A stretch of DNA of 37,497 nt, taken from the IMG/VR virus record IMGVR_UViG_3300042337_000733, positions 1 through 37,497 of that record; one strand, 5' to 3'. The DNA is from a virus. A program made the translations under genes and the position numbers. This document shows, in pieces, positions 2,013 through 30,015 of the stretch; positions within the stretch are counted from its first letter, which is position 1; each line of letters starts with the position of its first letter. The notes under the pieces are model-generated. The model worked only from the letters and a program-made list of their open reading frames with translations, was not told the origin of the DNA and ran no database searches.

Positions 2013-2216
2013 ATGCCTAGATTATACGAAATGCCGCACTATACTCCAGCAACTATTGACTTAGATAAAGTCTCGCATGTAACCAGACCATGGGGGGCAG
2101 AAGAAAAATATTCTATCTGGATGGATAATGGTACAGAATTTAATGTATCAAATTCTGTCCTTTCTCCAAGATATTTAAATCGAGATTCTTTTATTTCTAG
2201 TTGGTCAGGTGAGTAA
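2013..2216 (+). CDS. Hypothetical protein, 67 aa
   Basis: This small soluble protein has the segment EKYSIWMDNGTEFNVSNS, which looks like two beta strands and a turn. Its 3' end carries the ribosome binding site (AGGTGAG) of the following kinase-ligase gene. No family recognised. Confidence 0.55.
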   Translation: MPRLYEMPHYTPATIDLDKVSHVTRPWGAEEKYSIWMDNGTEFNVSNSVLSPRYLNRDSFISSWSGE

Positions 2217-2217
2217 A

Positions 2218-3474
2218 ATGAAAAACCTTATTCTTATTAGGGGAATCCCAGGTGCAGGTAAAACTACTCTGTTACAATCATTAGACAATTATATTTGCGT
2301 TGCAGCAGATGATTATCATACTGATGAAAAGGGTAATTATGCGTGGAAACCAGAGAATGTCAAACAAGCGCATGAATGGTGTCAAGCTCAAACAGAGAAG
2401 TGGATGCAATATGAAGAAAATGTTGCGGTCCATAATACTTTTACTACAGAGTGGGAAATGCAACCTTATTTTGATTTGGCTAAAACATATGGTTATCGTG
2501 TGACAACTTTAATCGTAGAAAATCGTCATGGTTCTAAATCAGTACATAATGTTCCAGCGGAAACTATTAAGAAAATGGTTGATCGATTTGAAATCAAATT
2601 AGCGCCAGATGTTGATTATACAGATTTTGTTCAGATTAAAGAACAAAATGGTTTGTTTGTACACAAATACAAACGCAAAGTTTTTTATGATAACCTATGG
2701 AATATGCATCCAGAATTAGTTGATGCTCGGGGTTTAATTAGAGACGCAGATGGTAATGTCGTACAATATCCATTTACCAAAGTATTTAACAGACACGAGA
2801 ATGGTACAGATATTCCATTAGACCATCAAGTAATAGCAGTAGATAAAATTAATGGATTTTTAGCGGCTGTTACATGGTATAACGGTGATATTTTAGTTTC
2901 AACAACTGGTTCTCTAACCAGCGAACATGTTGATATGGCAAAAGAAATATTGCCTTTAGACCGTATGAAACTTGTATTAGAATCGTATCAAAATTTATCT
3001 TTTTGTTTTGAGATTGTACATCCAAATGATCCTCATATTATTTCGGAATATGAGGGCGTTTATCTTATTGGTGCTCGTGAGAAAGTATTAGGTTCTGTAA
3101 AACAATCTGAAGTGTTTTTAGATGCAATTGCCTTAGATTTTGGTGTGTTTCGCCCAAAATGGGAATATATTCGTTTCTCAGACTTACTTGAAAAAGCTAA
3201 AACTTATAAACGAGAAGGCTATGTTGTGTATGATCAAGAATCTGATACTGTATTGAAATTAAAAACCCCATACTATTTGACATCAAAATTTATTGCTAGA
3301 ACCAAAAAATTAGATTTAATTTTTGATAGAAATTACAAACAGCATTTTGAGGAAGAGTTCTATAGTTTATGCGAACATTTACAGAAAAGTTATACTAAAG
3401 AACAATTTTTGGAAATTCCTGAACAAGAACGGTTGACTATTATTAGAGATTGGGCGGAGCATGCTTATGTTTAA
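2218..3474 (+). CDS. Polynucleotide kinase - RNA ligase fusion (RNA repair)
   Basis: Residues 1 to about 130 form a P-loop kinase domain, with Walker A GIPGAGKTT at residues 9-17, of the type that phosphorylates 5'-OH polynucleotide ends. The rest resembles an Rnl1/Trl1-type RNA ligase, with the nucleotidyl-transfer motif KING at 210-213 (Lys210 as adenylate acceptor), EGYVVYD as motif IV and LKLKTPYYL as motif V. KxNG rather than KxDG is also known in fungal tRNA ligase Trl1. The predicted role is to heal and seal broken RNA such as tRNA cut by host anticodon nucleases. No separate 3'-phosphatase/CPDase domain is visible. I chose ATG 2218 because AGGTGAG sits just upstream; a GTG at 2209 is possible. 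Confidence 0.8.
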   Translation: MKNLILIRGIPGAGKTTLLQSLDNYICVAADDYHTDEKGNYAWKPENVKQAHEWCQAQTEKWMQYEENVAVHNTFTTEWEMQPYFDLAKTYGYRVTTLIVENRHGSKSVHNVPAETIKKMVDRFEIKLAPDVDYTDFVQIKEQNGLFVHKYKRKVFYDNLWNMHPELVDARGLIRDADGNVVQYPFTKVFNRHENGTDIPLDHQVIAVDKINGFLAAVTWYNGDILVSTTGSLTSEHVDMAKEILPLDRMKLVLESYQNLSFCFEIVHPNDPHIISEYEGVYLIGAREKVLGSVKQSEVFLDAIALDFGVFRPKWEYIRFSDLLEKAKTYKREGYVVYDQESDTVLKLKTPYYLTSKFIARTKKLDLIFDRNYKQHFEEEFYSLCEHLQKSYTKEQFLEIPEQERLTIIRDWAEHAYV

Positions 3475-3486
3475 CTTTTTTATAAA

Positions 3487-3519
3487 GTGCTTGACTTCTG
3501 GCGCAGCATAGGTTACAAT
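3487..3519 (+). promoter_or_regulatory. Early-type sigma70-like promoter
   Basis: GTGC-TTGACT (-35 at 3491-3496), a 17-base spacer, and TACAAT (3514-3519), followed by AACTCTATAC as at several sister promoters. It drives the split RNA ligase gene. Confidence 0.9.
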
Positions 3520-3549
3520 AACTCTATACTAAACAATGAGAGGTAGATT

Positions 3550-4356
3550 ATGAGAAAATTAGCGAGTATTAAACGAATTCAAGAAATTAAATTGATCGAA
3601 GGTGCAGATTTAATTTGTGCGTATAGAGTAGATGGTTGGTGGATTGTTGACCAAAAAGAAAAATATAGCGTTGGTGATTTAGTCGTCTATTGTGAAATCG
3701 ATTCATTTTTGCCGCATACCCTTGTACCATTCTTATCTCGAGGTAAAGAACCTAGAGAGTTTGAGGGTGTTAAAGGTGAAAGATTACGGACAATCCGGTT
3801 AAAAGGCCAAATCTCACAGGGATTATTGTTGCCGGTATCAATTTTAAATATTGTTGCTGATGAATGCAGATCATTTGTTCCACCAGATTATTGGGAAAAT
3901 GCTGCAGGTATTCGTGTAGCTCACGAAGAAGATGCTGACGTTACTGAATTATTGGGTATCTTGAAATACGAACGACCATTGCCAGCACAATTAGCTGGTC
4001 AAGCTAAAGGTAATTTCCCAAGTTTTATTCCAAAAACTGACGAAGAACGCTGTATTTCAGCAGAAACACAAATCCAAACAGAAATTGGAAATATTACCAT
4101 AAAAGAAATTGTAGACGGTAAATTGAATATTAAAGTTGCTTCGTATAACCACGAAACGAATCAACTAGAATATAAGAATATTATTAATTGGTCTTTAATG
4201 TCTCGAAAAAATAATTGGTTAAAATTGACTACAAAATCTGGTCAAACTATAATTTGCACTAAAAATCATAAAATTTGGTGTGAAGATATTTTAGCGTATA
4301 GAAATTCTTCTGAATTAACTATTGGTCAAAAAATCATAATAAAAACCGAAGTATAA
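3550..4356 (+). CDS. RNA ligase N-terminal half fused to split-intein N fragment
   Basis: Residues 1-167 are the N-terminal domain of a DRB0094/Rnl5-type RNA ligase and end in FIPKTDEER. From Cys168 (codon 4051-4053) the sequence becomes an intein: block A is CISAETQIQTEIGN, then GNITIKEIVD, and block B contains TIICTKNHKIWC with the TxxH histidine. It stops after 101 intein residues. The matching C fragment and the rest of the ligase, including the catalytic lysine, are in a separate gene at 5393-6118. This half has no ligase activity of its own; trans-splicing would be needed. The promoter is at 3491-3519 and a ribosome binding site AGAGG precedes the ATG. Confidence 0.88.
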   Translation: MRKLASIKRIQEIKLIEGADLICAYRVDGWWIVDQKEKYSVGDLVVYCEIDSFLPHTLVPFLSRGKEPREFEGVKGERLRTIRLKGQISQGLLLPVSILNIVADECRSFVPPDYWENAAGIRVAHEEDADVTELLGILKYERPLPAQLAGQAKGNFPSFIPKTDEERCISAETQIQTEIGNITIKEIVDGKLNIKVASYNHETNQLEYKNIINWSLMSRKNNWLKLTTKSGQTIICTKNHKIWCEDILAYRNSSELTIGQKIIIKTEV

Positions 4357-4367
4357 ACAGTTTTTTA

Positions 4368-4375
4368 TATAAATA
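4368..4375 (+). promoter_or_regulatory. Candidate late promoter (TATAAATA)
   Basis: TATAAATA lies 33 bases before the homing endonuclease start at 4408. It matches the T4 late-promoter consensus. In DNA this AT-rich the octamer is expected by chance several times in the window, so position is the main support. Confidence 0.4.
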
Positions 4376-4407
4376 TATACATCATAGTAAAGTAAAAGGA
4401 TTAACTG

Positions 4408-5409
4408 ATGTATTGCCCAATATGTAAGAAAAAATTTACCGCCCGTGCTCAATTATCAGGACATTTAACAAAAATTCATAAATTAGAAAATAATCTAGAA
4501 AAAGAACAAATGATAGTTTATGAAATTTTTGGGGAATCAGAGGTAGAAAAAATAGTAAACGATTATATCCAAGAAAAATATTGTATTTACGATCTTCCTA
4601 TTGATATAGCAAAATATCTTTCTTTGTTAGGAGTAAAACGAACATCCAAACAAGAGAGAATGACAGATAGATACAAACAAAAATATTTAAATGGTATACA
4701 ACAAAAATATGGAACTGAGATAACAAATATTTCGCAAGTAAAAAAAATACAGTCGAAAAAAGAAAAAACATATTCCGACAAATATGGTAGTTACGAAAAT
4801 TATCTTTTGAACTGTAGAAATAATATGCAAATTGGGTTTAACAATTATGTAAAAACTGATAAATTTAACAAAACGTATCAAAAAATAAAAAATACTTGTT
4901 TAGAAAAATATGGGCATGAAAATTTTGGATTAGGTGAAGCTGCTAAATGTAAATCTATCAAAACCAAAAAAGAAACTATTGCTCAATGGGATTATGAAGA
5001 AAGATTGTCTAGAACTTCAAAGGCGAGAGAAGCTGTTAATAGTAGAGGGGGTTATTCCAGTAAACCGGAAAAGCGTGTTAGAAAAGCGTTAATAGATTTA
5101 GATATAGAAGCAGCTTATAATAAACATTTGTTTAATTATAACTGGGATTTAATTATAGATAAGTTTATAATAGAAGTTCAAGGAATAATGTGGCATGCAA
5201 AACCAACAAAGTATAAAGAATCCGATTTAATAATGGGGAAAATCTTAGCTAAAGATATATGGGAAAAAGATAAGAAAAAACAAACAAAGGCTAGAACTGA
5301 AGGTTATATCGTTATAGAAATATGGGAAGATGAAATTTCTAGTAGAAATGACATCGAATTATGCGAATTAGTTAAAAATAGGTTAATTGAAAATGGGTAT
5401 GAGTATTAA
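4408..5409 (+). CDS. Free-standing homing endonuclease (Vsr-like) inside a split intein
   Basis: This 333-residue protein lies between the two halves of a split intein. The N-terminus has a C2H2 zinc finger (CPICKKKF...HLTKIH). The middle carries QKYG/DKYG/LEKYG repeats also present in the homing endonucleases at 6972 and 29161. The C-terminal nuclease domain (KPEKRVRKAL, NWDLIIDKFIIEVQGIMWH, IVIEIWEDEI) matches the Vsr-like, EDxHD homing-nuclease family known from fractured genes and I-Bth0305I. It likely cuts intein-free ligase alleles so that the intein spreads. AAAGGA at 4395-4400 is the ribosome binding site. The last codons overlap the intein-C gene. Confidence 0.85.
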   Translation: MYCPICKKKFTARAQLSGHLTKIHKLENNLEKEQMIVYEIFGESEVEKIVNDYIQEKYCIYDLPIDIAKYLSLLGVKRTSKQERMTDRYKQKYLNGIQQKYGTEITNISQVKKIQSKKEKTYSDKYGSYENYLLNCRNNMQIGFNNYVKTDKFNKTYQKIKNTCLEKYGHENFGLGEAAKCKSIKTKKETIAQWDYEERLSRTSKAREAVNSRGGYSSKPEKRVRKALIDLDIEAAYNKHLFNYNWDLIIDKFIIEVQGIMWHAKPTKYKESDLIMGKILAKDIWEKDKKKQTKARTEGYIVIEIWEDEISSRNDIELCELVKNRLIENGYEY

Positions 5410-6118
5410 ATATGATGAAATTATTTCTATAGAAGACATTGAATGCGATTCTCTGAGATATGATATTACAGTAGAAGACAATCATAATTTTTTTGCTAAC
5501 AATATATTAGTTCATAATTGTCAAAATTTATCAAAAAATTTAGGTAAATGGTCACAATCGGATGATCAATGGGAAATTTCTGAAAAATTAGATGGCTCAT
5601 CTATGACTGTATTCTTTAGAAATAATGCTATGACTGACGCAGATGATTTTATTGCTGAATTTGGCGTTTGTTCTCGTAACCTGCAATTAAAAGAAACTGA
5701 AGGTAATTCTTTTTGGGGTGCTGCTAGAAAATATAATCTTGAAGAAAAATTAACTGCTCTAGATAGAAATATTGCAATTCAAGGCGAACTGGTTGGTCCA
5801 GGAATTCAAGGTAACAAATACAAACTAACTGATATTGACTTCTATGTATTTACCGTTTACGATATTGATAAGGGCGAATATTTATCCTCAGCAGACCGAT
5901 TAGAATTGTGTGAGAAATTGGGTTTGAAACACGTGCCTGTAATTACCAAATTGTCATTGATCAATTATAATATTGATGTTCTATTGACATTAGCAGAAGG
6001 TAAGAGTAAAATTAATCTTAGTACAGAACGTGAAGGTATTGTGTTTAAAAATATCCAGAATCCGCAATTACACTTTAAAGCAATTTCTAATAAATTTTTA
6101 ATGAAATTCGAGGATTAA
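5393..6118 (+). CDS. Split-intein C fragment fused to RNA ligase catalytic half
   Basis: The first 42 residues are an intein C fragment: block F (CDSLRYDITVEDNHNFFANN) and block G (ILVHN), ending in the essential His-Asn before Cys+1 (codon 5519-5521). The remaining 199 residues are the ligase catalytic domain, starting CQNLSKNLG. The adenylation motif is EKLDGSS; its Lys is residue 190 of the predicted 366-residue spliced protein. ELVGPGIQGNKY and REGIVFK are further ligase motifs. Joining the halves recreates DEER-CQNL, an uninterrupted ligase sequence. I chose ATG 5393 because AGG lies 10 bases upstream; ATG 5399 and TTG 5387 are alternatives. The gene overlaps the homing endonuclease by 17 bases. 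Confidence 0.88.
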   Translation: MGMSIKYDEIISIEDIECDSLRYDITVEDNHNFFANNILVHNCQNLSKNLGKWSQSDDQWEISEKLDGSSMTVFFRNNAMTDADDFIAEFGVCSRNLQLKETEGNSFWGAARKYNLEEKLTALDRNIAIQGELVGPGIQGNKYKLTDIDFYVFTVYDIDKGEYLSSADRLELCEKLGLKHVPVITKLSLINYNIDVLLTLAEGKSKINLSTEREGIVFKNIQNPQLHFKAISNKFLMKFED

Positions 6119-6120
6119 TA

Positions 6121-6975
6121 ATGATTATTGTAAAACAGCAAGAAAATTTTGTAGAAATTAAATTTCACACGTTCTCTGGTGGGGAAGAACATGTTAATGT
6201 TGTATTACCCTCGCCAGCTATTGTTAGTTCCTCAGTAGAAATTCTAGCAAGAATTGATAGTTCTAGCGAATTAATGCGGTTGTTGTTAGTAACTGATGCA
6301 TTAAAACGACTGGGAATTAAAACAATTGAATTGGTGTTACCTTATATTCCATATGCTCGTCAGGATAGAGTTTGTAATCTAGGCGATTCATTTTCGCTTA
6401 AAATCTTTGCAAATTTAATTAATGCTCAGGGTTATTCTAGAGTACATGTAACAGATGCTCATAGCACAGTTGCTACTGCATTATTAGATAATGTTGTAGA
6501 ACGAGCTCAATCTACTTTTGCATTCCCGTTGGCTTCTAGATTAAGAATTCTTGGGTTAGCTAATTACAGTTATATCGTTGCTCCGGATGCAGGTGCAAGT
6601 AAAAAAGCAGTTGATTTTGCTCGAGGGTACAATTTATCATCAAAAATTGATATTCTACAGGCTCTTAAAGTACGAGATCCTGCAACTGGTAACATTACTA
6701 AAACAGAATTGTTATCGGATAACTTGGATGGCGCAGATTGTTTGATCGTCGATGATGTGGCAGATGGAGCAGCCAGCTTTTTAAATTTAGCTGCAATATT
6801 GAAAGAGCGTGGCGCTGGAAAAATTGGATTATTTGTAACTCATGGTATTTTCAGTCGCGGGTTAGACATTGTATTCAACAGTGGAATAAGTGATGTATTT
6901 ACAACTGATTCTTTTGAACAAAAAGATCCTAGAGTTCAAATAATCCATAAATTTTTTCCTGATGTTATAACTTAA
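6121..6975 (+). CDS. Ribose-phosphate pyrophosphokinase-like enzyme (possible ADP-ribose pyrophosphate synthetase)
   Basis: At 284 residues this is a two-domain Prs-type protein. Family motifs are LPYIPYARQDR (ATP loop), VTDAHS (metal site), VAPDAGASKK, the PRPP-binding loop LIVDDVADGAAS, and VTHGIFSRG. Classic Prs has DDxxDTGGT in the PRPP loop; here it reads DDVADGAAS, a real divergence at the ribose-5-phosphate site. Prs makes PRPP from ribose-5-phosphate and ATP. In phage NARP1 operons, a Prs homologue (Adps) instead pyrophosphorylates ADP-ribose, and the NAMPT-like partner joins it to nicotinamide. The NAMPT homologue downstream at 8293 fits either pathway. The gene starts two bases after the ligase stop. 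Confidence 0.85.
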   Translation: MIIVKQQENFVEIKFHTFSGGEEHVNVVLPSPAIVSSSVEILARIDSSSELMRLLLVTDALKRLGIKTIELVLPYIPYARQDRVCNLGDSFSLKIFANLINAQGYSRVHVTDAHSTVATALLDNVVERAQSTFAFPLASRLRILGLANYSYIVAPDAGASKKAVDFARGYNLSSKIDILQALKVRDPATGNITKTELLSDNLDGADCLIVDDVADGAASFLNLAAILKERGAGKIGLFVTHGIFSRGLDIVFNSGISDVFTTDSFEQKDPRVQIIHKFFPDVIT

Positions 6976-8027
6976 GGTTTTGTTTTACATTTATCAAAAT
7001 GGTGTGATTTAAAATAACCGTTATCGTTTCCAGTTTTATTACAGTGTGGACAGGTAATTTGGGCTAATTTAGGTCGTATGGTTGGACATTTATCGAAATG
7101 AGTTCCAGCCATACCTCTAGATTTTCCAATTTTGCCACAATGAGGACAAACAACTAAATTGGAATGTGTATATGCCATAACACGTTTTTTCCCTGTTATT
7201 GTTGGGCAATAGTTATTATGATATTTTTGTATGTGAGCTATAGAACCCATTTCATCACAATGATCACATTTTATTATCGTAGAATTTATATGGTTTAACC
7301 TGTCTCTAGACATTTCCCGCATAAAATCTAATTGCCCATAATTCTCTACTCCAAATTTCTCCAAATTTGTAGATTTAATTTTACCTTTAACCTCAGGAGA
7401 TTGAGAAATATATTCTACTCCATATTTCTCTAAATTTGTAGATTTAATTTTATCTTTAATCTCAGGAGATTGGAAAACACACTCAACATTATATTTTTTC
7501 AAACAAGTTGATTTAGTTTTATTTTTAATTTTTTCGGACTGATTTGGGTGATTGACTCTAAAATTTTTTAAACTTGTTTGAACTTTTTTGTCTTTAATTT
7601 CAGGAATTTTACTAATATTATCTACACCATATTTAATTAAACATGAGTGTTTTCTAATTTCAGAGATTTTCGTATTATTAGGAGAACATAATGCATTATG
7701 GTTATTGTGCATATTTATCCATTCATCAGAATTAGCACAGTTATTTTGAATTAAAAACCAAGTTTCGTATGAATATACTGAATTCCAGCCAAATGGAATA
7801 ACAATTTCATGTTCCATTATTATATCTAATACAAGAAAAGATTCTAACCCAGTTTCTTTGATTAAACGGTTAATTTCTTTTGAAGAAGTGGTATAACCAT
7901 TTTCCGACATAAAAGTATTTGCATTAGCATTTCTAAATTTATATCCGGCGTATTTTTTATCGGTTGGTATGTGTTTAATTATATAGAAATATGGTTCGTT
8001 AATAGTATAAATATCTGTGCTGGGCAT
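6972..8027 (-). CDS. GIY-YIG-like homing endonuclease with zinc fingers
   Basis: This 351-residue protein starts with a GIY-YIG-like domain (PYFYIIKHIPTDKKYAGYKF, then YETWFL with a possible catalytic Glu). Four or five tandem units of about 24 residues follow, of the form LEKYGVEYISQSPEVKGKIK. Three CxxC...H...C zinc-finger-like motifs end it (CDHCDEMG, CPHCGKIG, CPHCNKTG). The repeats and fingers are likely DNA-binding modules. It is inserted on the opposite strand between the Prs-like and NAMPT-like genes, with its stop overlapping the Prs stop by 4 bases. GAGGA precedes the ATG. Its paralogue is at 29161-30015. Confidence 0.8.
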   Translation of the reverse strand: MPSTDIYTINEPYFYIIKHIPTDKKYAGYKFRNANANTFMSENGYTTSSKEINRLIKETGLESFLVLDIIMEHEIVIPFGWNSVYSYETWFLIQNNCANSDEWINMHNNHNALCSPNNTKISEIRKHSCLIKYGVDNISKIPEIKDKKVQTSLKNFRVNHPNQSEKIKNKTKSTCLKKYNVECVFQSPEIKDKIKSTNLEKYGVEYISQSPEVKGKIKSTNLEKFGVENYGQLDFMREMSRDRLNHINSTIIKCDHCDEMGSIAHIQKYHNNYCPTITGKKRVMAYTHSNLVVCPHCGKIGKSRGMAGTHFDKCPTIRPKLAQITCPHCNKTGNDNGYFKSHHFDKCKTKP

Positions 8028-12824: not shown

Positions 12825-12854
12825 AACTCTATACCCTTTTTTATGGAGTTTGTT

Positions 12855-13868
12855 ATGTCTCGTCTAGGTTTTGCTTGTAAATGGATCGATCGCCCTGATC
12901 AAGTTGATGGTATTAAATCAACTGACGATTGCAAGAAATATAATACCGGAACCACCACCGTTGCTTGGCTTAACCGTCAAATCAAATCAACTGCTGAAGC
13001 TAAATTATTATCTTTGGTCAAACAAAATATTACAGCCGCCCGCAGATTAGTCGAAAAAGTAGGAACACTTGATGACAAATTAAGGATGGTACGTTTATCC
13101 AGCGATATTCTTCCAGTATACACTCATGCTGATTATAGTTATTTTTATCAGCAACCACATGTTAAAGAATTATTACAAACAGGCTTTGACTCTATCGGAT
13201 CCGTTGCTCGTGCTCGTGGTGTGCGCTTGTCTTTTCATCCTGGTCAATTTTGCGTGTTATCCAGTGATCGTCCAGATGTAGTAGAAAATAGCATATCCGA
13301 GTTCGAATACCATGCAGATATGGCTCGCTGGATGGGATACGGTCGTGTGTTTCAGGATATGAAGATCAATGTACATATCTCAGGTAAACTTGGTCCTGCA
13401 GGATTTTTGTTGGCATATGACCGACTCAGCGATGTCGCTAAAAATTGTATAACTATTGAAAACGAAGAATATAGTTTTGGGTTAGATGAATGTTTAACTC
13501 TTGCGGCATATTGTCCTATTGTTCTAGATTTACACCATTTTTGGATTAAAGAAGAAACATATTTTTCTAAAGAAGATATTAGAATGCAACAAATTATCGA
13601 TAGTTGGAGAGGAGTTCGTCCTGTTATACACTATTCTTATAGTAGAGACGAACATTTTCCGAAAGATTTTACACACGATAATTTTCCAGATATGGAAAAC
13701 TTGTTAAATTTAGGATATAAAAAATCTAAGTTACGAGCACATAGTAACGGTTATCCTAACCAAACAGTAAATAAATATGCTTTATCCTTTTTAGATATTG
13801 CGGACATTATGTGCGAAGCTAAATTAAAAAATTTAGCTTCGTTCGAATTATTTAATCAGGCCAGATAA
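12855..13868 (+). CDS. uvsE: UV DNA damage endonuclease (UvdE), with foreign C-terminal part
   Basis: At 337 residues this is a complete UVDE-type TIM-barrel endonuclease, which nicks DNA 5' of UV photoproducts. Family segments include SRLGFACKW at the start, LSFHPGQFCVLSS, NVHISGK, IENEEYSFGLDE, VLDLHHFW, RGVRPVIHYSYSR and KSKLRAHS. From about Glu204 (base 13464) to the stop, the DNA becomes visibly more AT-rich. A second, diverged copy of exactly this C-terminal part lies downstream at 14612-15028, beyond a homing endonuclease. The simplest reading is that the endonuclease insertion brought a replacement 3' end, keeping the gene intact. ATG 12855 is preferred over 12843 because GGAG lies at 12845-12848. 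Confidence 0.9.
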   Translation: MSRLGFACKWIDRPDQVDGIKSTDDCKKYNTGTTTVAWLNRQIKSTAEAKLLSLVKQNITAARRLVEKVGTLDDKLRMVRLSSDILPVYTHADYSYFYQQPHVKELLQTGFDSIGSVARARGVRLSFHPGQFCVLSSDRPDVVENSISEFEYHADMARWMGYGRVFQDMKINVHISGKLGPAGFLLAYDRLSDVAKNCITIENEEYSFGLDECLTLAAYCPIVLDLHHFWIKEETYFSKEDIRMQQIIDSWRGVRPVIHYSYSRDEHFPKDFTHDNFPDMENLLNLGYKKSKLRAHSNGYPNQTVNKYALSFLDIADIMCEAKLKNLASFELFNQAR

Positions 13869-14568
13869 CTCTCCAACCTTTAATAGTTTTTGCGGATTTA
13901 TGTAAAATTGCGGAAATATTAGCATTATGTAAATCATATTTATATATTAATTCTAATCTAGTACAGTTTTCAATAATACCAGATTTATGTGAAAATGTAT
14001 ATACAGTTTTGTTTATACTCTTTCCAGGTTTATTTCTACTAATCTGTTTGCGTTTGACATTACCTGTAATTACAGGACATTTATCTCCATGATTTCTTGA
14101 AAAATTTGCTATATCAGTTTCTTTTTTACAATGGATACAACACATTTTTATTTGGGAAGGATGTGTTCCAGCTTTTAACCTTGCAGCGTTACTTTTTGAT
14201 TGAATTGCTCCTCCTAAAAATGGATGCGTTCCTTCTTCCACAAGTTTAGTCGAATTTTTACGGGATTGTTCTCCTCCTAAAAAATGATGAAGGTTTAAGG
14301 AAACTAATCTATTTTGGCCTGCTCTTGATAATTCAGATAATTCTTTTGGAGATATTTTCATTTTGTTACCTATTCGGAAACATGCCATATAATCACCTTG
14401 TTCTAGATGTATATTATAATGTTCTTTGATTGATATGCATTGTAAATTATCAATATGGTTGTTATTTCTATTTCCGTCTATATGGTGTATTTCATAACTA
14501 CGTCCATCTTCATCGACAGGTATGTTTCCGTAGTGTTTTATGTAAAATTTTCTATAATTAATTGCCAT
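13852..14568 (-). CDS. HNH homing endonuclease inserted in uvsE
   Basis: This 238-residue protein has an HNH nuclease domain near the start (YEIHHIDGNRNNNHIDNLQ, then HYNIH). Two NUMOD3-like units (HHFLGG and HPFLGG) and a CxxC...H...C zinc finger (CIHCKKET...HGDKC) like those of the GIY-YIG-like homing endonucleases follow. A NUMOD1/IENR1-like helix-turn-helix (NISAILHKSAKTIKGWRV) ends the protein. It lies antisense between the working uvsE gene and the displaced native uvsE 3' end, and overlaps the uvsE stop by 17 bases. Its target is probably the uvsE sequence near base 13464. Confidence 0.85.
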   Translation of the reverse strand: MAINYRKFYIKHYGNIPVDEDGRSYEIHHIDGNRNNNHIDNLQCISIKEHYNIHLEQGDYMACFRIGNKMKISPKELSELSRAGQNRLVSLNLHHFLGGEQSRKNSTKLVEEGTHPFLGGAIQSKSNAARLKAGTHPSQIKMCCIHCKKETDIANFSRNHGDKCPVITGNVKRKQISRNKPGKSINKTVYTFSHKSGIIENCTRLELIYKYDLHNANISAILHKSAKTIKGWRVIWPD

Positions 14569-14611
14569 AATAATTTTTTATCAGTTGTAAAAATTTTATT
14601 ATTATTTATTT

Positions 14612-15028
14612 GAGGAGTTCGCTCATGGACTTGATGCTTGTCTTAGTATTTCTGACAGGATTCCTGTCGTTTTGGATATTCACCATCATTTTATTAAAAC
14701 TGGAGAATACATCTCGCCAGATGACCCGAGGATTGCTCAGGTTATTCAAAGTTGGCGAGGCGTTCGCCCTGTTATTCATTATTCTATTAGCCGAGAAGAT
14801 ACTCTCGCCAATCATTGTCCCCATACTCTACCAGATCTCGCAGCTCTTATAGCCGCAGGTCATACTAAAAGTAAATTGCGTGCGCATTCAGATTTCTACT
14901 GGAACACTGCCGTCAACGATTGGGCATTATCGCACCTTAGCTGGGCAGACATAATGGCGGAAAGTAAAGCCAAGAATTTAGCTGTACAGCAATTATCAAA
15001 AAAGTGCTTGACTTCTAGCGCACAATAG
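14612..15028 (+). pseudogene. uvsE: Displaced native 3' end of uvsE
   Basis: In the frame starting at 14612 the sequence reads EEFAHGLDACLSIS, then PVVLDIHHHFIK, RGVRPVIHYSISR and KSKLRAHSDFYWN, and ends KKCLTSSAQ. It aligns along its whole length with the last 134 residues of the uvsE gene at 12855-13868, at roughly half identity. It has no start codon or ribosome binding site and begins exactly at the homing endonuclease border. It is most likely the original 3' end, stranded after insertion. Its terminal codons overlap the DNA ligase promoter, which may explain why it has not been deleted. Confidence 0.85.
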
Positions 15029-15058: not shown

Positions 15059-16354
15059 ATGTTAAATTTATTGAATCAACTAGCAGCAACATCAGGCACT
15101 AACGACAAAATCGCTCTATTAAAATCATATGTTGATGATCCTGTTGTGCGAGCTGTATTTTTATTTGCTTATAATCCCAGAATTAAATATTGGATTAAAA
15201 AACGTCCTCCAGTTTCTCCAAATAACGGTATTACCGTAGATTTGATTGGCGCTTTATCCAGCATTAAAGTTAATATTTGTAATAGAGAGCTTACTGGTAA
15301 TGAAGCTATCGAATATGTATCTATGATACTAGGTAAATTGCCAGTAGATGATCAAGAAGTTTTATATCGTATTATCGAACGCGATTTAAAATGTGGCGTT
15401 AGCGCAAAAACTGTAAATAAAATTTGGAAAGATTTAATTCCAGAATATCCAGTTTTATTGTGCGGCAAATTCAATGAGAAAACCGAAAAGAATATTAAAT
15501 ATCCAGCTATTTTTCAATGTAAAATGGATAGTTCTAGAATTAATCTAGAGTTTGATGGTGGAAAATTCGTATCGGCTACAACCAGAAATGGTAATATTCT
15601 AGATATCTCATGTTTTGATGATATTGAAATTGCAACTCATGAAAGATGTATTCTAGATGGCGAATTAATGTGGCGCTATCCTGATGGTCGAGTAGCAGAA
15701 CGCAAAGTATCTAATGGTTATGTAACAAAAGCTGTTCGTGGAACAATTACCTCAGAAGAAGCTAAGGGATTGTATGTTGTTCTCTGGGATTATATTCCTT
15801 ATGATGATTTTTTAAACGAATATTGTTCAGTTGGTTATGCTACAAGATTTAAATTTGTTGGACTAGCAGTTCCTACAAATCAAACTAAATTACAAATTGT
15901 TGAATCTGAGATTGTAAATTCTCGTGAAGAAGTTATGCAAAAATATCAGCGTAATCTAGAACGAGGTGAAGAAGGCGGAATTCTTAAAGCAATGGATGGT
16001 GTTTGGGAAGCCAAACGATCTAAATACCAATTAAAATTAAAAGCAGAAGACCCTATGGACCTATTGGTAGTTGGCTTTGAATATGGTACTCCAGGAACTC
16101 AATTTGAAGGTATGTTGGGTTCATTAATTTGTGAAACTGCTTGTGGTCGATTGCGAGTAAATGTTGGTTCTGGATTTAAACATAAACGTGGTGAACGAGA
16201 TAACCCAGAATCTTATGTTGGTAAAATTATCGAGGTAAAATATAATTGTATTATTTCAAGCCGAGATTCAGATATTAAATCTTTATTCCTACCAATTTTT
16301 TCTCGCGTTAGGGATGATAAAACTGTTGCTAATACTTTAGAGGATATAGAATGA
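15059..16354 (+). CDS. ATP-dependent DNA ligase
   Basis: This 431-residue ligase resembles the T4 gp30 type, with an N-terminal helical domain (about 1-120), a nucleotidyltransferase domain and a C-terminal OB fold. Motif I reads KMDSSR with Lys155 as the adenylate acceptor. The usual KxDG glycine is a serine here. Other motifs are TTRNGN (motif Ia), ILDGELMW (III), EEGGILKAMDG (IV) and YQLKLKAEDPMDLLVVGFE (V). It seals nicks in phage DNA during replication and repair. GGAG precedes the ATG, and it overlaps the macro-domain gene by four bases. Confidence 0.9.
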   Translation: MLNLLNQLAATSGTNDKIALLKSYVDDPVVRAVFLFAYNPRIKYWIKKRPPVSPNNGITVDLIGALSSIKVNICNRELTGNEAIEYVSMILGKLPVDDQEVLYRIIERDLKCGVSAKTVNKIWKDLIPEYPVLLCGKFNEKTEKNIKYPAIFQCKMDSSRINLEFDGGKFVSATTRNGNILDISCFDDIEIATHERCILDGELMWRYPDGRVAERKVSNGYVTKAVRGTITSEEAKGLYVVLWDYIPYDDFLNEYCSVGYATRFKFVGLAVPTNQTKLQIVESEIVNSREEVMQKYQRNLERGEEGGILKAMDGVWEAKRSKYQLKLKAEDPMDLLVVGFEYGTPGTQFEGMLGSLICETACGRLRVNVGSGFKHKRGERDNPESYVGKIIEVKYNCIISSRDSDIKSLFLPIFSRVRDDKTVANTLEDIE

Positions 16355-18549: not shown

Positions 18550-18960
18550 TTTAAAATCACACTAGGTGTTCAGGTTCGATAAGGTGAGATAATATCAAAG
18601 AACTCGGTTTGAGTCCGTTATGTCCTTATGCAGTGTGATTTTAAAGTATTCGTTGAAGGTGTTATAATAGTTTTGGCGGACGGGGATAGCATTATTCCCC
18701 CACCTCCACCAGAAACATACTTTTGCCGCAGCTAAGTAGTGACGACGGTCACATAAACGAACTGGAATGAAAAAATTCTGCCGGACCAGTTTAAGTGTGT
18801 TTCTGATGGGGGTGAACAGATTCGACGTTGAGATCAAAGAACACTGGAGAATCGAGAGATGACTGACGTAATCAGCATAAAATAAGTAAATGGCGAAGCT
18901 AAAAACGACGCTTTCTATAATTCTACTGCTCTAGCGGCTTAAAATTATAGTTGGGTTTTT
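18550..18960 (+). ncRNA. ssrA: Circularly permuted (two-piece) tmRNA
   Basis: The 3' tRNA-like half comes first: GGAC (18678), T-arm stem GGGGA/TCCCC (18682-18700), CACCTCC (18701-18707) and ACCA (18708-18711). The 5' half follows: GGGGGTG (18808-18814), then GATTCGAC (18819-18826). GGGGGTG and CACCTCC form a 7-bp acceptor stem with the G3-U pair that alanyl-tRNA synthetase recognises. A 96-base spacer between them folds back (18711-18720 with 18795-18804). GGTGTT and AACACT form P2. The tag frame (18889-18942) likely encodes NGEAKNDAFYNSTALAA and stops at TAA, enclosed by the H5 stem CTATAATT/AATTATAG. The T-loop has nine bases and lacks TTCRA. The 5' end is uncertain; a 14-bp inverted repeat (18550-18563, 18632-18645) lies before the core. 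Confidence 0.88.
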
Positions 18961-19851: not shown

Positions 19852-21483
<1,632 letters not shown>

Positions 21484-24368: not shown

Positions 24369-24752
24369 TTAACCTTGATTTTCTATATATTTTTTAATGG
24401 TATCTGTTGAAGCATCACCAACAGTACAACAAAAATACCCTGTTGACCACAAATAATTTTTGTGCCAATAATATTTTCGTAAATCGGCTGGATACTCGTT
24501 CCACAAATAATATGTAGTATATTGTTTGATAAGTCTAACTATTAATGATACAGATTGCAATGGTTTTAATTTGACCATGATATGTATATGGTTCATATCA
24601 TCCCCTTTGATAGCAATTATTTCACAATGTAATTCTTCTAATTTAGATTTAACAATCTCTATGATATATCCCATCATAGTTTCTGTTAATATTTGTTTAC
24701 GGTATTTTGTTACTATCACTATATGATAATTTAAGTTGGTTTTATTTGCCAT
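24369..24752 (-). CDS. tnpA: IS200/IS605 TnpA transposase (HUH, Y1)
   Basis: A 127-residue Y1 transposase with the metal-binding HUH motif HIHIMV and the catalytic Tyr in DTIKKYIENQ near the C-terminus. It cuts and rejoins single-stranded DNA at the element's hairpin ends. All active-site residues are present, so it could be functional. ATG 24752 (MANKTNLNYHIVIV) is preferred to an upstream TTG. It is transcribed away from tnpB. Confidence 0.9.
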   Translation of the reverse strand: MANKTNLNYHIVIVTKYRKQILTETMMGYIIEIVKSKLEELHCEIIAIKGDDMNHIHIMVKLKPLQSVSLIVRLIKQYTTYYLWNEYPADLRKYYWHKNYLWSTGYFCCTVGDASTDTIKKYIENQG

Positions 24753-24815
24753 TATCTGTAATCTCAAAAATTTGTTTTACTAAATAATAGTATATATCAA
24801 CAAATTTAGTAAAAC

Positions 24816-25952
24816 ATGTTCATTAGACAAAACTATAGAATCTACCCAAATAAAGATCAAACCGTTGTATTAAATCAATGGTTAGGTCAAGCTCGCTTTA
24901 TTTGGAACTATATGTTAGCTAAAAACATAGAAAAATATCAATTAGAACAAAAATTTATTTTTAAATTTGATATGAATAATTTATTACCAGATTTAAAAGC
25001 TATAGATGATTATTCTTGGTTAAAAGAAATCCCATCACAATGTTTACAACAAAAATGTCAAGATTTAGATACTGCATTAAAATCTAGTTTTAAATCTAAA
25101 ACCAATAAAAAAGGATTTCCTAAATTTAAATCCAGAAAAACCGATGAATCTGGAATTAGATTCCCTAATTTTAAATTTGAAGGGAATAGAATTATTTTAC
25201 CTAAAATGAAGCAAGGAATTAAAATTAAACTTCATCGAGAATTATTAGGTAAAAAAGGTGCTATAACCGTATTTAAAGATAAAATAGGTAATTTTTATGT
25301 TTCGATACTTGTTGAATTAGATGATAATTTTTACCCGTCATTAGTCACTAAAATTAATTCTGGTGTTGGTATCGATGTTGGGCTAAAAGAATTTGCCATA
25401 ACATCAGATGCAGAAATAATATCTAATCCTAGATTTTACCGTAAAGCAGAAAAACAACTTAAAAAATTACAACGTCAACATTCTAAAAAACAAAAAAGTT
25501 CTAACAATAAAAATAAAGCTAGAATAAGATTAGCTAAAAAATATAAACAAGTAACAAATAAACGAACCGACTTTATTAAAAAAACCGCTAATTCGATAGT
25601 CAAGAATAACGATTTAATAGTAGTCGAAACTTTAAATATCCAAGGAATGATGAAAAATCATAAACTTGCTAAATCAATTGCTGATGTGAGCTGGTATCAA
25701 TTCCAACAAGAATTACAATGGCAATGTAAAAAACAAGGAAAATGGTTTACAAAAATCAATCAATGGATACCTTCTAGTAAAACTTGTAATTGCTGTGGTC
25801 ATATAAAATCCGATTTAACATTATCTGATAGAATCTATAACTGTGATAATTGTGGATTATCAATTGATCGCGATCTAAATGCAGCAATTAACATATACAA
25901 AGAAGGTTTAAATAAATTAAATACCGTAGGAACTACGGAAATTAACGCCTGA
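24816..25952 (+). CDS. tnpB: TnpB RNA-guided nuclease of the IS605 element
   Basis: This 378-residue TnpB has an N-terminal helix-turn-helix/REC region, a complete RuvC site (Asp187 in GIDVGLKEFA, Glu271 in VVETLNIQGM, Asp353 in DRDLNAAINI) and the zinc ribbon CNCCGH...CDNCG. TnpB is the ancestor of Cas12 and cuts DNA under guidance of an RNA made from the element's right end, helping the IS to persist. Length is normal and no disruptions are visible. Confidence 0.92.
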   Translation: MFIRQNYRIYPNKDQTVVLNQWLGQARFIWNYMLAKNIEKYQLEQKFIFKFDMNNLLPDLKAIDDYSWLKEIPSQCLQQKCQDLDTALKSSFKSKTNKKGFPKFKSRKTDESGIRFPNFKFEGNRIILPKMKQGIKIKLHRELLGKKGAITVFKDKIGNFYVSILVELDDNFYPSLVTKINSGVGIDVGLKEFAITSDAEIISNPRFYRKAEKQLKKLQRQHSKKQKSSNNKNKARIRLAKKYKQVTNKRTDFIKKTANSIVKNNDLIVVETLNIQGMMKNHKLAKSIADVSWYQFQQELQWQCKKQGKWFTKINQWIPSSKTCNCCGHIKSDLTLSDRIYNCDNCGLSIDRDLNAAINIYKEGLNKLNTVGTTEINA

Positions 25953-29160: not shown

Positions 29161-30015
29161 TTATGTTTTTAATTTACAATTATTAAAATGCCATCGCATC
29201 ATAATTGGTTTATTGCCAATTTTATTACAATATGGACAAGTAACTTGTATATTAACATGAAATTCCACGCCATATTTTTCTAAATTAGTTTTTTTAAATG
29301 TATTAAATATTCGTTCTTTTATTTCTGGATCTTTTGATGGATGGTCTACTCCATATACTTCCAAACAAGTCTGTTTCGATTTTTCTTTTATTATCGGCGA
29401 TTGCAACCCATATTCATAACCATATCTTTCTAAATTAGTTAATTTAGTATTTTCTTTTATTACGTCAGATTGTAAGGGAAATTCTACACCATATTTTTTT
29501 ATATTGGTGGCTTTCATTCTATTTAAAATTTCTTCATTTTTTGCAGGAGAATCTACTCCATAATTATCTAATAAAGTTTGTTTAGACTTTTCCCGTATTT
29601 CTGGAGCTTGTAAACAATATTCGTAACCATATTTTTCTAAACATGTTGTTTTAGATTTGTCATAAAATTCTGCGGTTCCAAATACCATTCCCTCATTATT
29701 ATGTTTATTATACCAATCAGGCGAAGTTGCACAATTATATTCGTTTAAAAACCATGTTTCATATTGATATACAGATTGTACGCTAAACGGAATTATAAGT
29801 TCATCTAAAGTTATAATTTCTATTATTTCAAATACATCAACGCCTTCCCGTTCTATTATAGAATTAATTATTATAGATGATGTAGTATATCCGCCTTTTT
29901 GCATAAATTCTGATGGGTGACAACCTTTTGCCCATCTAGATCCAGCATATTGTTTACCCGTTTCTTTATGTCGGATAATATAAAAATATGGCATATAAAT
30001 ATTTTTGCTGAGCAT
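29161..30015 (-). CDS. GIY-YIG-like homing endonuclease, paralogue of 6972-8027
   Basis: A 284-residue protein: GIY-YIG-like domain (PYFYIIRHKETGKQYAGSRW, then YETWFL), five or six LEKYGYEYCLQAPEIREKSK-type repeats, and one C-terminal CPYCNKIG...HFNNC finger. It closely resembles the endonuclease at 6972-8027 but has one finger instead of three. It sits in sense orientation inside the endolysin/holin/curli operon, between the second and third holin-like genes. AAGGAG precedes the ATG. Leader hairpin and TATAAATA lie upstream. Confidence 0.82.
   Translation of the reverse strand: MLSKNIYMPYFYIIRHKETGKQYAGSRWAKGCHPSEFMQKGGYTTSSIIINSIIEREGVDVFEIIEIITLDELIIPFSVQSVYQYETWFLNEYNCATSPDWYNKHNNEGMVFGTAEFYDKSKTTCLEKYGYEYCLQAPEIREKSKQTLLDNYGVDSPAKNEEILNRMKATNIKKYGVEFPLQSDVIKENTKLTNLERYGYEYGLQSPIIKEKSKQTCLEVYGVDHPSKDPEIKERIFNTFKKTNLEKYGVEFHVNIQVTCPYCNKIGNKPIMMRWHFNNCKLKT

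What the first reader, a model, noticed from the sequence alone, without database searches (positions are those of the whole stretch)
3550..6118. RNA ligase broken into two genes by a split intein with a free-standing Vsr-like homing endonuclease
The N gene (3550-4356) ends with intein blocks A and B beginning at Cys168. The C gene (5393-6118) begins with intein blocks F and G (ILVHN) before Cys+1. Between them lies an endonuclease gene of the Vsr-like family. Joining residue 167 to Cys+1 restores DEER-CQNL in a DRB0094-type ligase, just upstream of the catalytic KLDG. This is the fractured-gene arrangement known for a few metagenomic replication genes, here in an RNA ligase. Both halves have usable starts, so the active ligase may exist only after trans-splicing.
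Basis: partly seen in the sequence, partly recalled or inferred. Interest (0 to 1): 0.88.

Follow-up and report, generated by a model that had tools for sequence, protein, structure and literature searches.

The report
Phage RNA ligase split by intein
A phage RNA-repair enzyme is encoded as two half-genes, each carrying half of a self-splicing protein (a split intein) and separated by a DNA-cutting 'homing' gene, so the working enzyme most likely exists only after the halves are stitched together; this parasite arrangement is already known, but I found no earlier report of it in an RNA ligase.

Summary
Window 3550-6118 holds a DRB0094/Rnl5-type RNA ligase cut in two at KTDEER|CQNL. The N gene ends in a split-intein N half (101 aa), the C gene starts with a C half (42 aa), and a complete 333-aa endonuclease gene lies between. 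The endonuclease has an EDxHD/Vsr-type catalytic domain and an N-terminal C2H2-like finger. It is not a sequencing artefact: four further, unrelated viral contigs have the same three genes at the same ligase site. A sister phage (97-98% identical flanks) has the uninterrupted gene; next to the junction it differs by only 3 nt, which change Val to Cys at +1. Intein-free homologues have Ile/Val there in 114 of 120 cases; all five intein-bearing ones have Cys. On the ligase tree the insertion is sporadic, as expected of a homing element. Most likely the halves trans-splice, and the nuclease copies the whole unit into empty alleles; both steps are inferred, not shown. This is the published 'fractured gene' kind in a new host enzyme, so a new member of a known kind. 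The sister phage carries a split intein in its DNA ligase instead. A contiguous LAGLIDADG intein is already annotated in a different phage RNA ligase (KLEP7).

The parts
3550..4050 (+). Ligase N-extein (167 aa): OB-fold domain plus linker ending KTDEER; its last residue aligns with Arg149 of Naegleria RNA ligase
   Evidence: PF21189 6.7e-27; TIGR02306 first half; phrog_968 RNA ligase; NgrRnl alignment
3538..3543 (+). GAGAGG, possible ribosome-binding site of the N gene
   Evidence: read from sequence
4051..4353 (+). Split-intein N half, 101 aa (Cys1 at 4051-4053; block B TKNH at 4258-4269); stop TAA 4354-4356
   Evidence: TIGR01445 39.8 bits, above cut-off; T237, N239, H240 and C168 invariant in five loci
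4408..5409 (+). Homing endonuclease gene, 333 aa, own ATG and AAAAGGA upstream (4394-4400)
   Evidence: 27-57% identical, complete homologues in the same position at four other RNA ligase loci and one NAD-DNA ligase locus
4411..4479 (+). C2H2-like zinc finger (CPIC...HLTKIH) at the endonuclease N-terminus
   Evidence: Pfam zf-C2H2 0.012, below cut-off in the window copy; Cys3, Cys6 and His19 invariant in six copies, last His in five; model pLDDT about 91-94
5053..5406 (+). EDxHD/Vsr-like catalytic domain (E221, D247, E256, H263, D288)
   Evidence: 3r3p Foldseek 6.0e-5; 1cw0 Z 13.6, rmsd 2.9, 113 residues; D247, E256, H263, D288 invariant in six copies
5393..5518 (+). Split-intein C half, 42 aa (block F 5456-5494, block G NILVHN 5501-5518); start overlaps the endonuclease's last 17 nt in another frame
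   Evidence: TIGR01443 34.0 bits, above cut-off; overlap conserved in kind in all loci
5519..6118 (+). Ligase C-extein: Cys+1 (TGT 5519-5521), then the nucleotidyltransferase domain with KLDG
   Evidence: PF09414 1.4e-32; TIGR02306 second half; +1 statistics; empty-site alleles

Best explanation
A mobile fractured-gene element sits in a phage Rnl5-type RNA ligase. The two half-genes are translated separately. The intein halves (101 + 42 aa) bind, fold and splice, joining Arg167 to Cys+1 and giving a 366-aa ligase whose only trace is Cys in place of Val/Ile. Neither half holds a complete ligase: the N half has the OB domain and the Arg equivalent to NgrRnl Arg149; the C half has the adenylylated lysine and the rest of the nucleotidyltransferase domain. 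The EDxHD endonuclease between them most likely cuts intein-free ligase alleles at the conserved active-site coding sequence, so that repair from the element-bearing genome copies the unit, together with the +1 Cys codon, into the recipient. Shown: anatomy, intact motifs, recurrence, empty sites, sporadic distribution. Inferred: splicing, ligase activity, cleavage and homing.
For: Intein and ligase profiles on the halves; block residues invariant in five loci; same three-gene layout and site in five independent contigs; sister-phage empty site with a nearly identical tract (113 nt up, 162 nt down apart from 3 nt at the junction) and V->C at +1; second empty-site pair L163/L168 with the same V->C; +1 Cys in 5/5 with intein, Ile/Val in 114/120 without; five state changes on the ligase tree; insert lower in GC than the ligase in all five loci; endonuclease fold and best PHROG match phrog_22677, whose profile the endonuclease of the annotated Aes508 split polymerase fits end to end; dN/dS estimates 0.09-0.32 for all five parts against L163, with dS near saturation; ligase model and profile match NgrRnl.
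Against: No expression, splicing or cleavage data. Endonuclease Vsr and zinc-finger profile scores in the window copy are below curated cut-offs. Block A departs from the usual CLSGDT (CISAET). The nearly identical tract around the site could also be ordinary phage mosaicism, since the sister allele's N-terminus has itself been replaced. The search that found the homologues was seeded with this sequence, so the +1 counts are not an unbiased sample.
Confidence: 0.87

Rival explanations
1. Genes in pieces: the two halves assemble without splicing into a two-subunit ligase, as reported for phage Aeh1 NrdA.
For: Aeh1 NrdA split by a mobE endonuclease keeps function as two peptides (PMC3653736). 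The break lies between the OB domain and the nucleotidyltransferase domain.
Against: Both intein halves keep every splicing residue in five loci, and +1 is always Cys though relatives have Ile/Val. Neither would be kept if splicing did not matter.
Confidence: 0.06
2. Decaying element: a formerly mobile split intein that no longer splices, leaving the ligase a pseudogene; a second RNA ligase gene next door (2209-3474) covers the function.
For: A second RNA-ligase-like gene lies immediately upstream; block A deviates slightly.
Against: All frames intact; dN/dS estimates 0.09-0.32 for ligase, intein and endonuclease against L163; ligase key residues conserved.
Confidence: 0.04
3. RNA-level joining: the middle part is an intron carrying an endonuclease gene, so the intein is contiguous in the mature mRNA.
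For: Aes508 gp43B carries a group I intron as well as the split intein, so phage genes can hold both.
Against: No group I or II intron in the region even at E up to 5. Every locus has a stop just after the N half and a start codon for the C half overlapping the endonuclease end.
Confidence: 0.02
4. Sequencing or assembly artefact breaking one reading frame.
For: Single metagenomic contig.
Against: Four other contigs with the same organisation in diverged homologues; the sister phage lacks only the insert.
Confidence: 0.01

Closest known systems
'Fractured genes' of Dassa et al. 2009 (split inteins with a free-standing EDxHD endonuclease; paper not held, known through citing papers)
   Same: Split intein at the usual endonuclease position (about 100 + 40 aa), free-standing Vsr-like endonuclease gene between the halves, phage DNA
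   Different: Host is an Rnl5-type RNA ligase; I could not check Dassa's own host list. The citing paper PMC3653736 names only nrdA and nrdJ
Aeromonas phage Aes508/Aes123 split DNA polymerase (gp43B-1 / VSR endonuclease / gp43B-2)
   Same: Same three-gene order; endonuclease end overlaps the C-intein start by 17 nt as in the window; endonuclease nuclease domains 35% identical over 105 residues
   Different: Different extein; published as a cysteine-less intein (PMC11923092), whereas this one uses Cys1 and Cys+1; the N gene there also holds a group I intron
Phage KLEP7 'intein-containing RNA ligase' (OM654377.1)
   Same: Intein in a phage RNA ligase
   Different: Contiguous intein with a LAGLIDADG domain, in a protein that matches PF09414 but not TIGR02306, at another site (GEWAG|C...HN|SN)
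Naegleria gruberi RNA ligase NgrRnl (PDB 5cot, 6vt series; Rnl5)
   Same: Closest solved homologue of the ligase: profile E 5.6e-118, model TM 0.84-0.87
   Different: No intein; Val instead of Cys at the position after the TDQER arginine
I-Bth0305I homing endonuclease catalytic domain (3r3p) and E. coli Vsr (1cw0)
   Same: Catalytic fold of the endonuclease, residues 216-333
   Different: The window protein is not intron-encoded and adds an N-terminal C2H2-like finger and a long helical middle region

Membership tests
Split intein (typical split at the endonuclease site) | N-half motifs: Cys/Ser 1 and block B TxxH | tested here: met
   TIGR01445 above cut-off; Cys168 and T237..H240 present and invariant in five loci
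Split intein (typical split at the endonuclease site) | C-half motifs: block F, penultimate His, terminal Asn, +1 Cys/Ser/Thr | tested here: met
   TIGR01443 above cut-off; V-H-N|C invariant in five loci
Split intein (typical split at the endonuclease site) | Halves on separate genes, about 100 + 40 aa | tested here: met
   101 + 42 aa; separate frames and stops
Split intein (typical split at the endonuclease site) | Trans-splicing activity | not testable with these tools
   needs co-expression
Fractured gene with EDxHD homing endonuclease | Free-standing endonuclease gene between the intein halves | tested here: met
Fractured gene with EDxHD homing endonuclease | EDxHD/Vsr-like catalytic fold and residues | tested here: met
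   Foldseek 3r3p 6.0e-5, Vsr Z 13.6; E221, D247, H263, D288 present; D247, H263, D288 invariant in six copies
Fractured gene with EDxHD homing endonuclease | Cuts the intein-free allele | not testable with these tools
   only indirect: empty sites and sporadic distribution
Vsr mismatch endonuclease (TIGR00632 / PF03852) | Score above the family cut-off | tested here: not met
   23.3 bits against 97.85; 13 bits against 27: same fold, not a Vsr repair enzyme
C2H2 zinc finger (Pfam) | Score above the family cut-off | tested here: not met
   16.5 bits against 25.2 for the window copy; the Cys/His pattern is present and mostly conserved, so called 'C2H2-like'
Rnl5 / DRB0094-type RNA ligase | TIGR02306 covered by the two halves together | tested here: met
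   profile 2-152 and 146-341; the halves score 92 and 84 bits separately, the cut-off of 151 is for the whole protein
Rnl5 / DRB0094-type RNA ligase | OB domain N-terminal to the nucleotidyltransferase, KxDG nucleophile | tested here: met
   PF21189 + PF09414; sister allele model matches NgrRnl, TM 0.84-0.87
Rnl5 / DRB0094-type RNA ligase | RNA nick sealing | not testable with these tools
   needs enzyme assay
Group I or II intron | Covariance-model match around the insert | tested here: not met
   none at E up to 5 over 3400-6300

The most novel reading that the evidence does not exclude
A lineage of split inteins specialised on the catalytic cores of nucleic-acid ligases: it sits at the same site in diverse Rnl5 RNA ligases and next to the KxDG lysine in ATP-dependent (L167) and NAD-dependent (L065) DNA ligases, and moves between ligase families. 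Sister phages then hold reciprocal states (RNA ligase split here, DNA ligase split there). Each insertion in an RNA ligase overwrites the native Val/Ile at +1 with Cys, which may leave a lasting Cys 'scar' when the element is lost (intein-free L026, L120 and L155 have Cys).
Probability: 0.2. Interest if true: 0.66.

Novelty: new member of a known kind. Interest (0 to 1): 0.5.

Why it matters
It extends fractured genes to an RNA-repair enzyme and gives an unusually clean natural experiment: near-identical sister phages with and without the element, a defined +1 codon change, and five diverged intein pairs at one site. The halves have opposite net charge in four of the five pairs, with reversed polarity between pairs (window +3/-7, L163 +6/-9; L165 -6/+5, L166 -6/+4), which predicts mutually orthogonal split inteins useful as protein-joining tools. 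It also makes testable whether a free-standing EDxHD enzyme homes a split intein.

Tried and rejected
Endonuclease searches in viral contigs: the single-protein query found nothing, and the three-row alignment found again only two loci already held, with patterns that fell partly in the zinc finger. In the bacterial and archaeal genome collection the C-gene query gave 12 loci, none a close relative and none matching intein C half and ligase together over the length of the query. Sequencing error, intron, pseudogene and unspliced two-subunit readings were considered and set aside (see rivals). The spliced 366-aa protein was not folded, because the predictor takes only unaltered proteins; the intein-free allele of the sister phage (L001) was folded as a stand-in. 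Dassa et al. 2009 and an NgrRnl mutational paper are not in the library. A paper search for split intein + RNA ligase + phage gave two unrelated papers, so 'no report found' refers only to the held library. Intein tree: the five RNA ligase inteins group with the two DNA ligase inteins, but support is 92, under the 95 threshold, so it is kept only as the novel case. Independent-pairs test of +1 Cys against intein: five pairs nearly always agree, but five pairs cannot reach p 0.05.

Full report
Setting. The window is a 37,497-base virus record, held as one contig, with a phage-like gene set. No near relative was found among 50,697 named phage records by megablast of 8 kb. Its nearest known relative is contig IMGVR_UViG_3300044641_007991 (loci L001 and L167), 97-98% identical over most of the shared stretches.

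Check of the observation. The N gene (3550-4356, 268 aa) starts after GAGAGG, encodes 167 aa of ligase and then Cys168-Val268. The C gene (ATG 5393, stop 6118) encodes 42 aa ending ILVHN, then CQNL and the rest of a ligase. The 333-aa gene 4408-5409 lies between. The N gene matches TIGR01445 (intein N-terminal region) above its cut-off, starting exactly at Cys168; the C gene matches TIGR01443 (intein C-terminal region) above its cut-off. RNA ligase family TIGR02306 is covered 2-152 by one and 146-341 by the other. Pfam gives the PHA02142 OB-fold domain in the N gene and RNA_ligase PF09414 in the C gene.

It is not an artefact. The insert is 1468 nt, not a multiple of three; three in-frame TAA codons separate the N gene from the endonuclease and the C gene is in another frame. 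Four further contigs show the same three genes at the same ligase position: L003 (=L164), L018 (=L166), L163 and L165. Against the window, L163 is 55/56/57/72/58% identical (ligase N, intein N, endonuclease, intein C, ligase C) and L003 47/41/53/71/39%. In every locus the C gene starts 7-35 nt before the end of the endonuclease gene, in another frame.

The empty site. L001 carries an uninterrupted ligase. Beside the junction the two sequences are identical for 113 nt upstream and 162 nt downstream, except for three bases at the junction itself: window CGC|TGT, L001 CGT GTT, that is Arg unchanged and Val to Cys at +1. Outside aa 128-247 identity falls sharply upstream and gradually downstream. 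That is what co-conversion during homing would leave, but L001's own N-terminus has been replaced, so mosaicism is not excluded. A second pair, L163 with the intein and L168 without, again differs at +1 by TGT (Cys) against GTA (Val).

The +1 residue and distribution. Among 120 different intein-free homologues the residue is Ile 85, Val 29, Cys 3, Ala 1, Trp 1, Leu 1; in the five fractured ligases it is always Cys. This sample was gathered with queries from this locus and is not random. On a tree of 124 ligases the intein state changes five times, and the window groups with intein-free L001 (98) rather than with the other fractured ligases. The inserts have lower GC than their ligases in all five loci (0.24-0.29 against 0.32-0.45). 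All parts appear to be under purifying selection against L163 (dN/dS estimates 0.09-0.32, dS near saturation). These are the marks of a mobile element that is still intact.

The ligase. The closest solved structure is Naegleria gruberi RNA ligase NgrRnl (profile E 5.6e-118). The AlphaFold model of the L001 allele (mean pLDDT 88.9) matches it at TM 0.84-0.87. By the alignment, with the one-residue numbering offset between the chain sequence and the PDB titles (which name K170 and R149 mutants), the intein sits directly after the residue equivalent to Arg149 and about 21-23 residues before the nucleophilic lysine. Each half therefore lacks residues that the other holds, which supports, but does not prove, that neither half is a complete ligase.

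The endonuclease. Its profile matches I-Bth0305I (3r3p, 1.2e-6) and Vsr (1cw0, 0.0026). Residues 216-333 of its model match 3r3p (Foldseek 6.0e-5) and Vsr 1cw0 (Z 13.6, rmsd 2.9 over 113 residues). The EDxHD residues read E221, D247, H263 and D288; all but E221 are invariant in six copies. It scores far below the Vsr family cut-offs, so it shares the fold without being a Vsr repair enzyme. An N-terminal C2H2-like finger is conserved in pattern though sub-threshold in Pfam. Its best PHROG, phrog_22677, is matched end to end by the endonuclease of the split DNA polymerase of Aeromonas phage Aes508.

How it most likely works. The halves are translated from separate starts, the intein halves associate and splice, and a 366-aa ligase with one Cys substitution results. 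The endonuclease most likely cuts the conserved active-site DNA of intein-free alleles, and repair copies the unit in. Sequence anatomy, recurrence and empty sites are shown; splicing and cutting are inferred.

What is known. Fractured genes with split inteins and this endonuclease class were described in 2009 (Dassa et al., not held; cited in PMC7090010, PMC3653736, PMC6892783). Aes508 gp43B has the same three-gene order with the same 17-nt overlap. Phage MIJ3 has a split DNA polymerase intein with an HNH endonuclease. Phage KLEP7 has an annotated, contiguous LAGLIDADG intein in a different RNA ligase. So RNA ligases as intein hosts are not new; a fractured Rnl5-type ligase is, as far as the held library shows.

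Wider pattern. The sister phage's ATP-dependent DNA ligase is split by another split intein beside KMDSS, with an unclassified ORF on the minus strand between the halves (L167). The window phage's DNA ligase is uninterrupted there and already has Cys at +1. L065 has a NAD-dependent DNA ligase split at KLDG|C with a Vsr-like endonuclease (the NAD-ligase identity is judged from its sequence). These ligase inteins group together on a small intein tree, with support below the usual threshold.

Noticed in passing
window 18647-18942 (+); also L167 10728-11023: Permuted (two-piece) tmRNA gene in a phage, 85 bits against a cut-off of 47, missed by ARAGORN; about 1 kb upstream of a GroEL gene (19864-21483).
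   Followed up: partly
L167 5545-8432 (contig of the sister phage): ATP-dependent DNA ligase split by another split intein beside its KMDSS motif, with an unclassified 362-aa ORF on the minus strand between the halves; the window's DNA ligase (15059-16354) is uninterrupted and has Cys at the +1 position.
   Followed up: yes
L065 4218-7519: DNA ligase (NAD-dependent type, judged from sequence) split at KLDG|C by a split intein with a Vsr-like, zinc-finger-bearing endonuclease in between.
   Followed up: partly
L001 3910-6597: The sister phage's RNA ligase has a replaced, divergent N-terminus next to a GIY-YIG endonuclease on the minus strand (4185-5399), leaving a 47-aa fragment of the original gene start.
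   Followed up: partly
L012 984-3328: A related RNA ligase is interrupted after about residue 100 by an inserted ORF (1374-2267) that looks like a GIY-YIG endonuclease, at a different site and without intein halves.
   Followed up: no
window 3550-6118 compared with L163, L165, L166: Net charges of the intein halves are opposite in four of five pairs, and the polarity is reversed between the window/L163 and L165/L166.
   Followed up: partly
window 12843-15028: A UvdE-like UV-endonuclease gene (12843-13868) followed by an HNH endonuclease on the minus strand (13852-14568) and a UvdE C-terminal-like fragment (14672-15028); the sister phage has one intact 345-aa gene there (L167 4476-5513).
   Followed up: partly
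window 6972-8027 (-) and 29161-30015 (-): Two free-standing DUF7487 homing-endonuclease-like genes.
   Followed up: no
window 24369-25952: IS200/IS605-like pair judged from sequence alone: a small TnpA-like ORF (-) beside a TnpB-like ORF (+).
   Followed up: no
window 2209-3474: A second RNA-ligase-like gene with an N-terminal kinase-type ATPase domain lies directly upstream of the split ligase.
   Followed up: no
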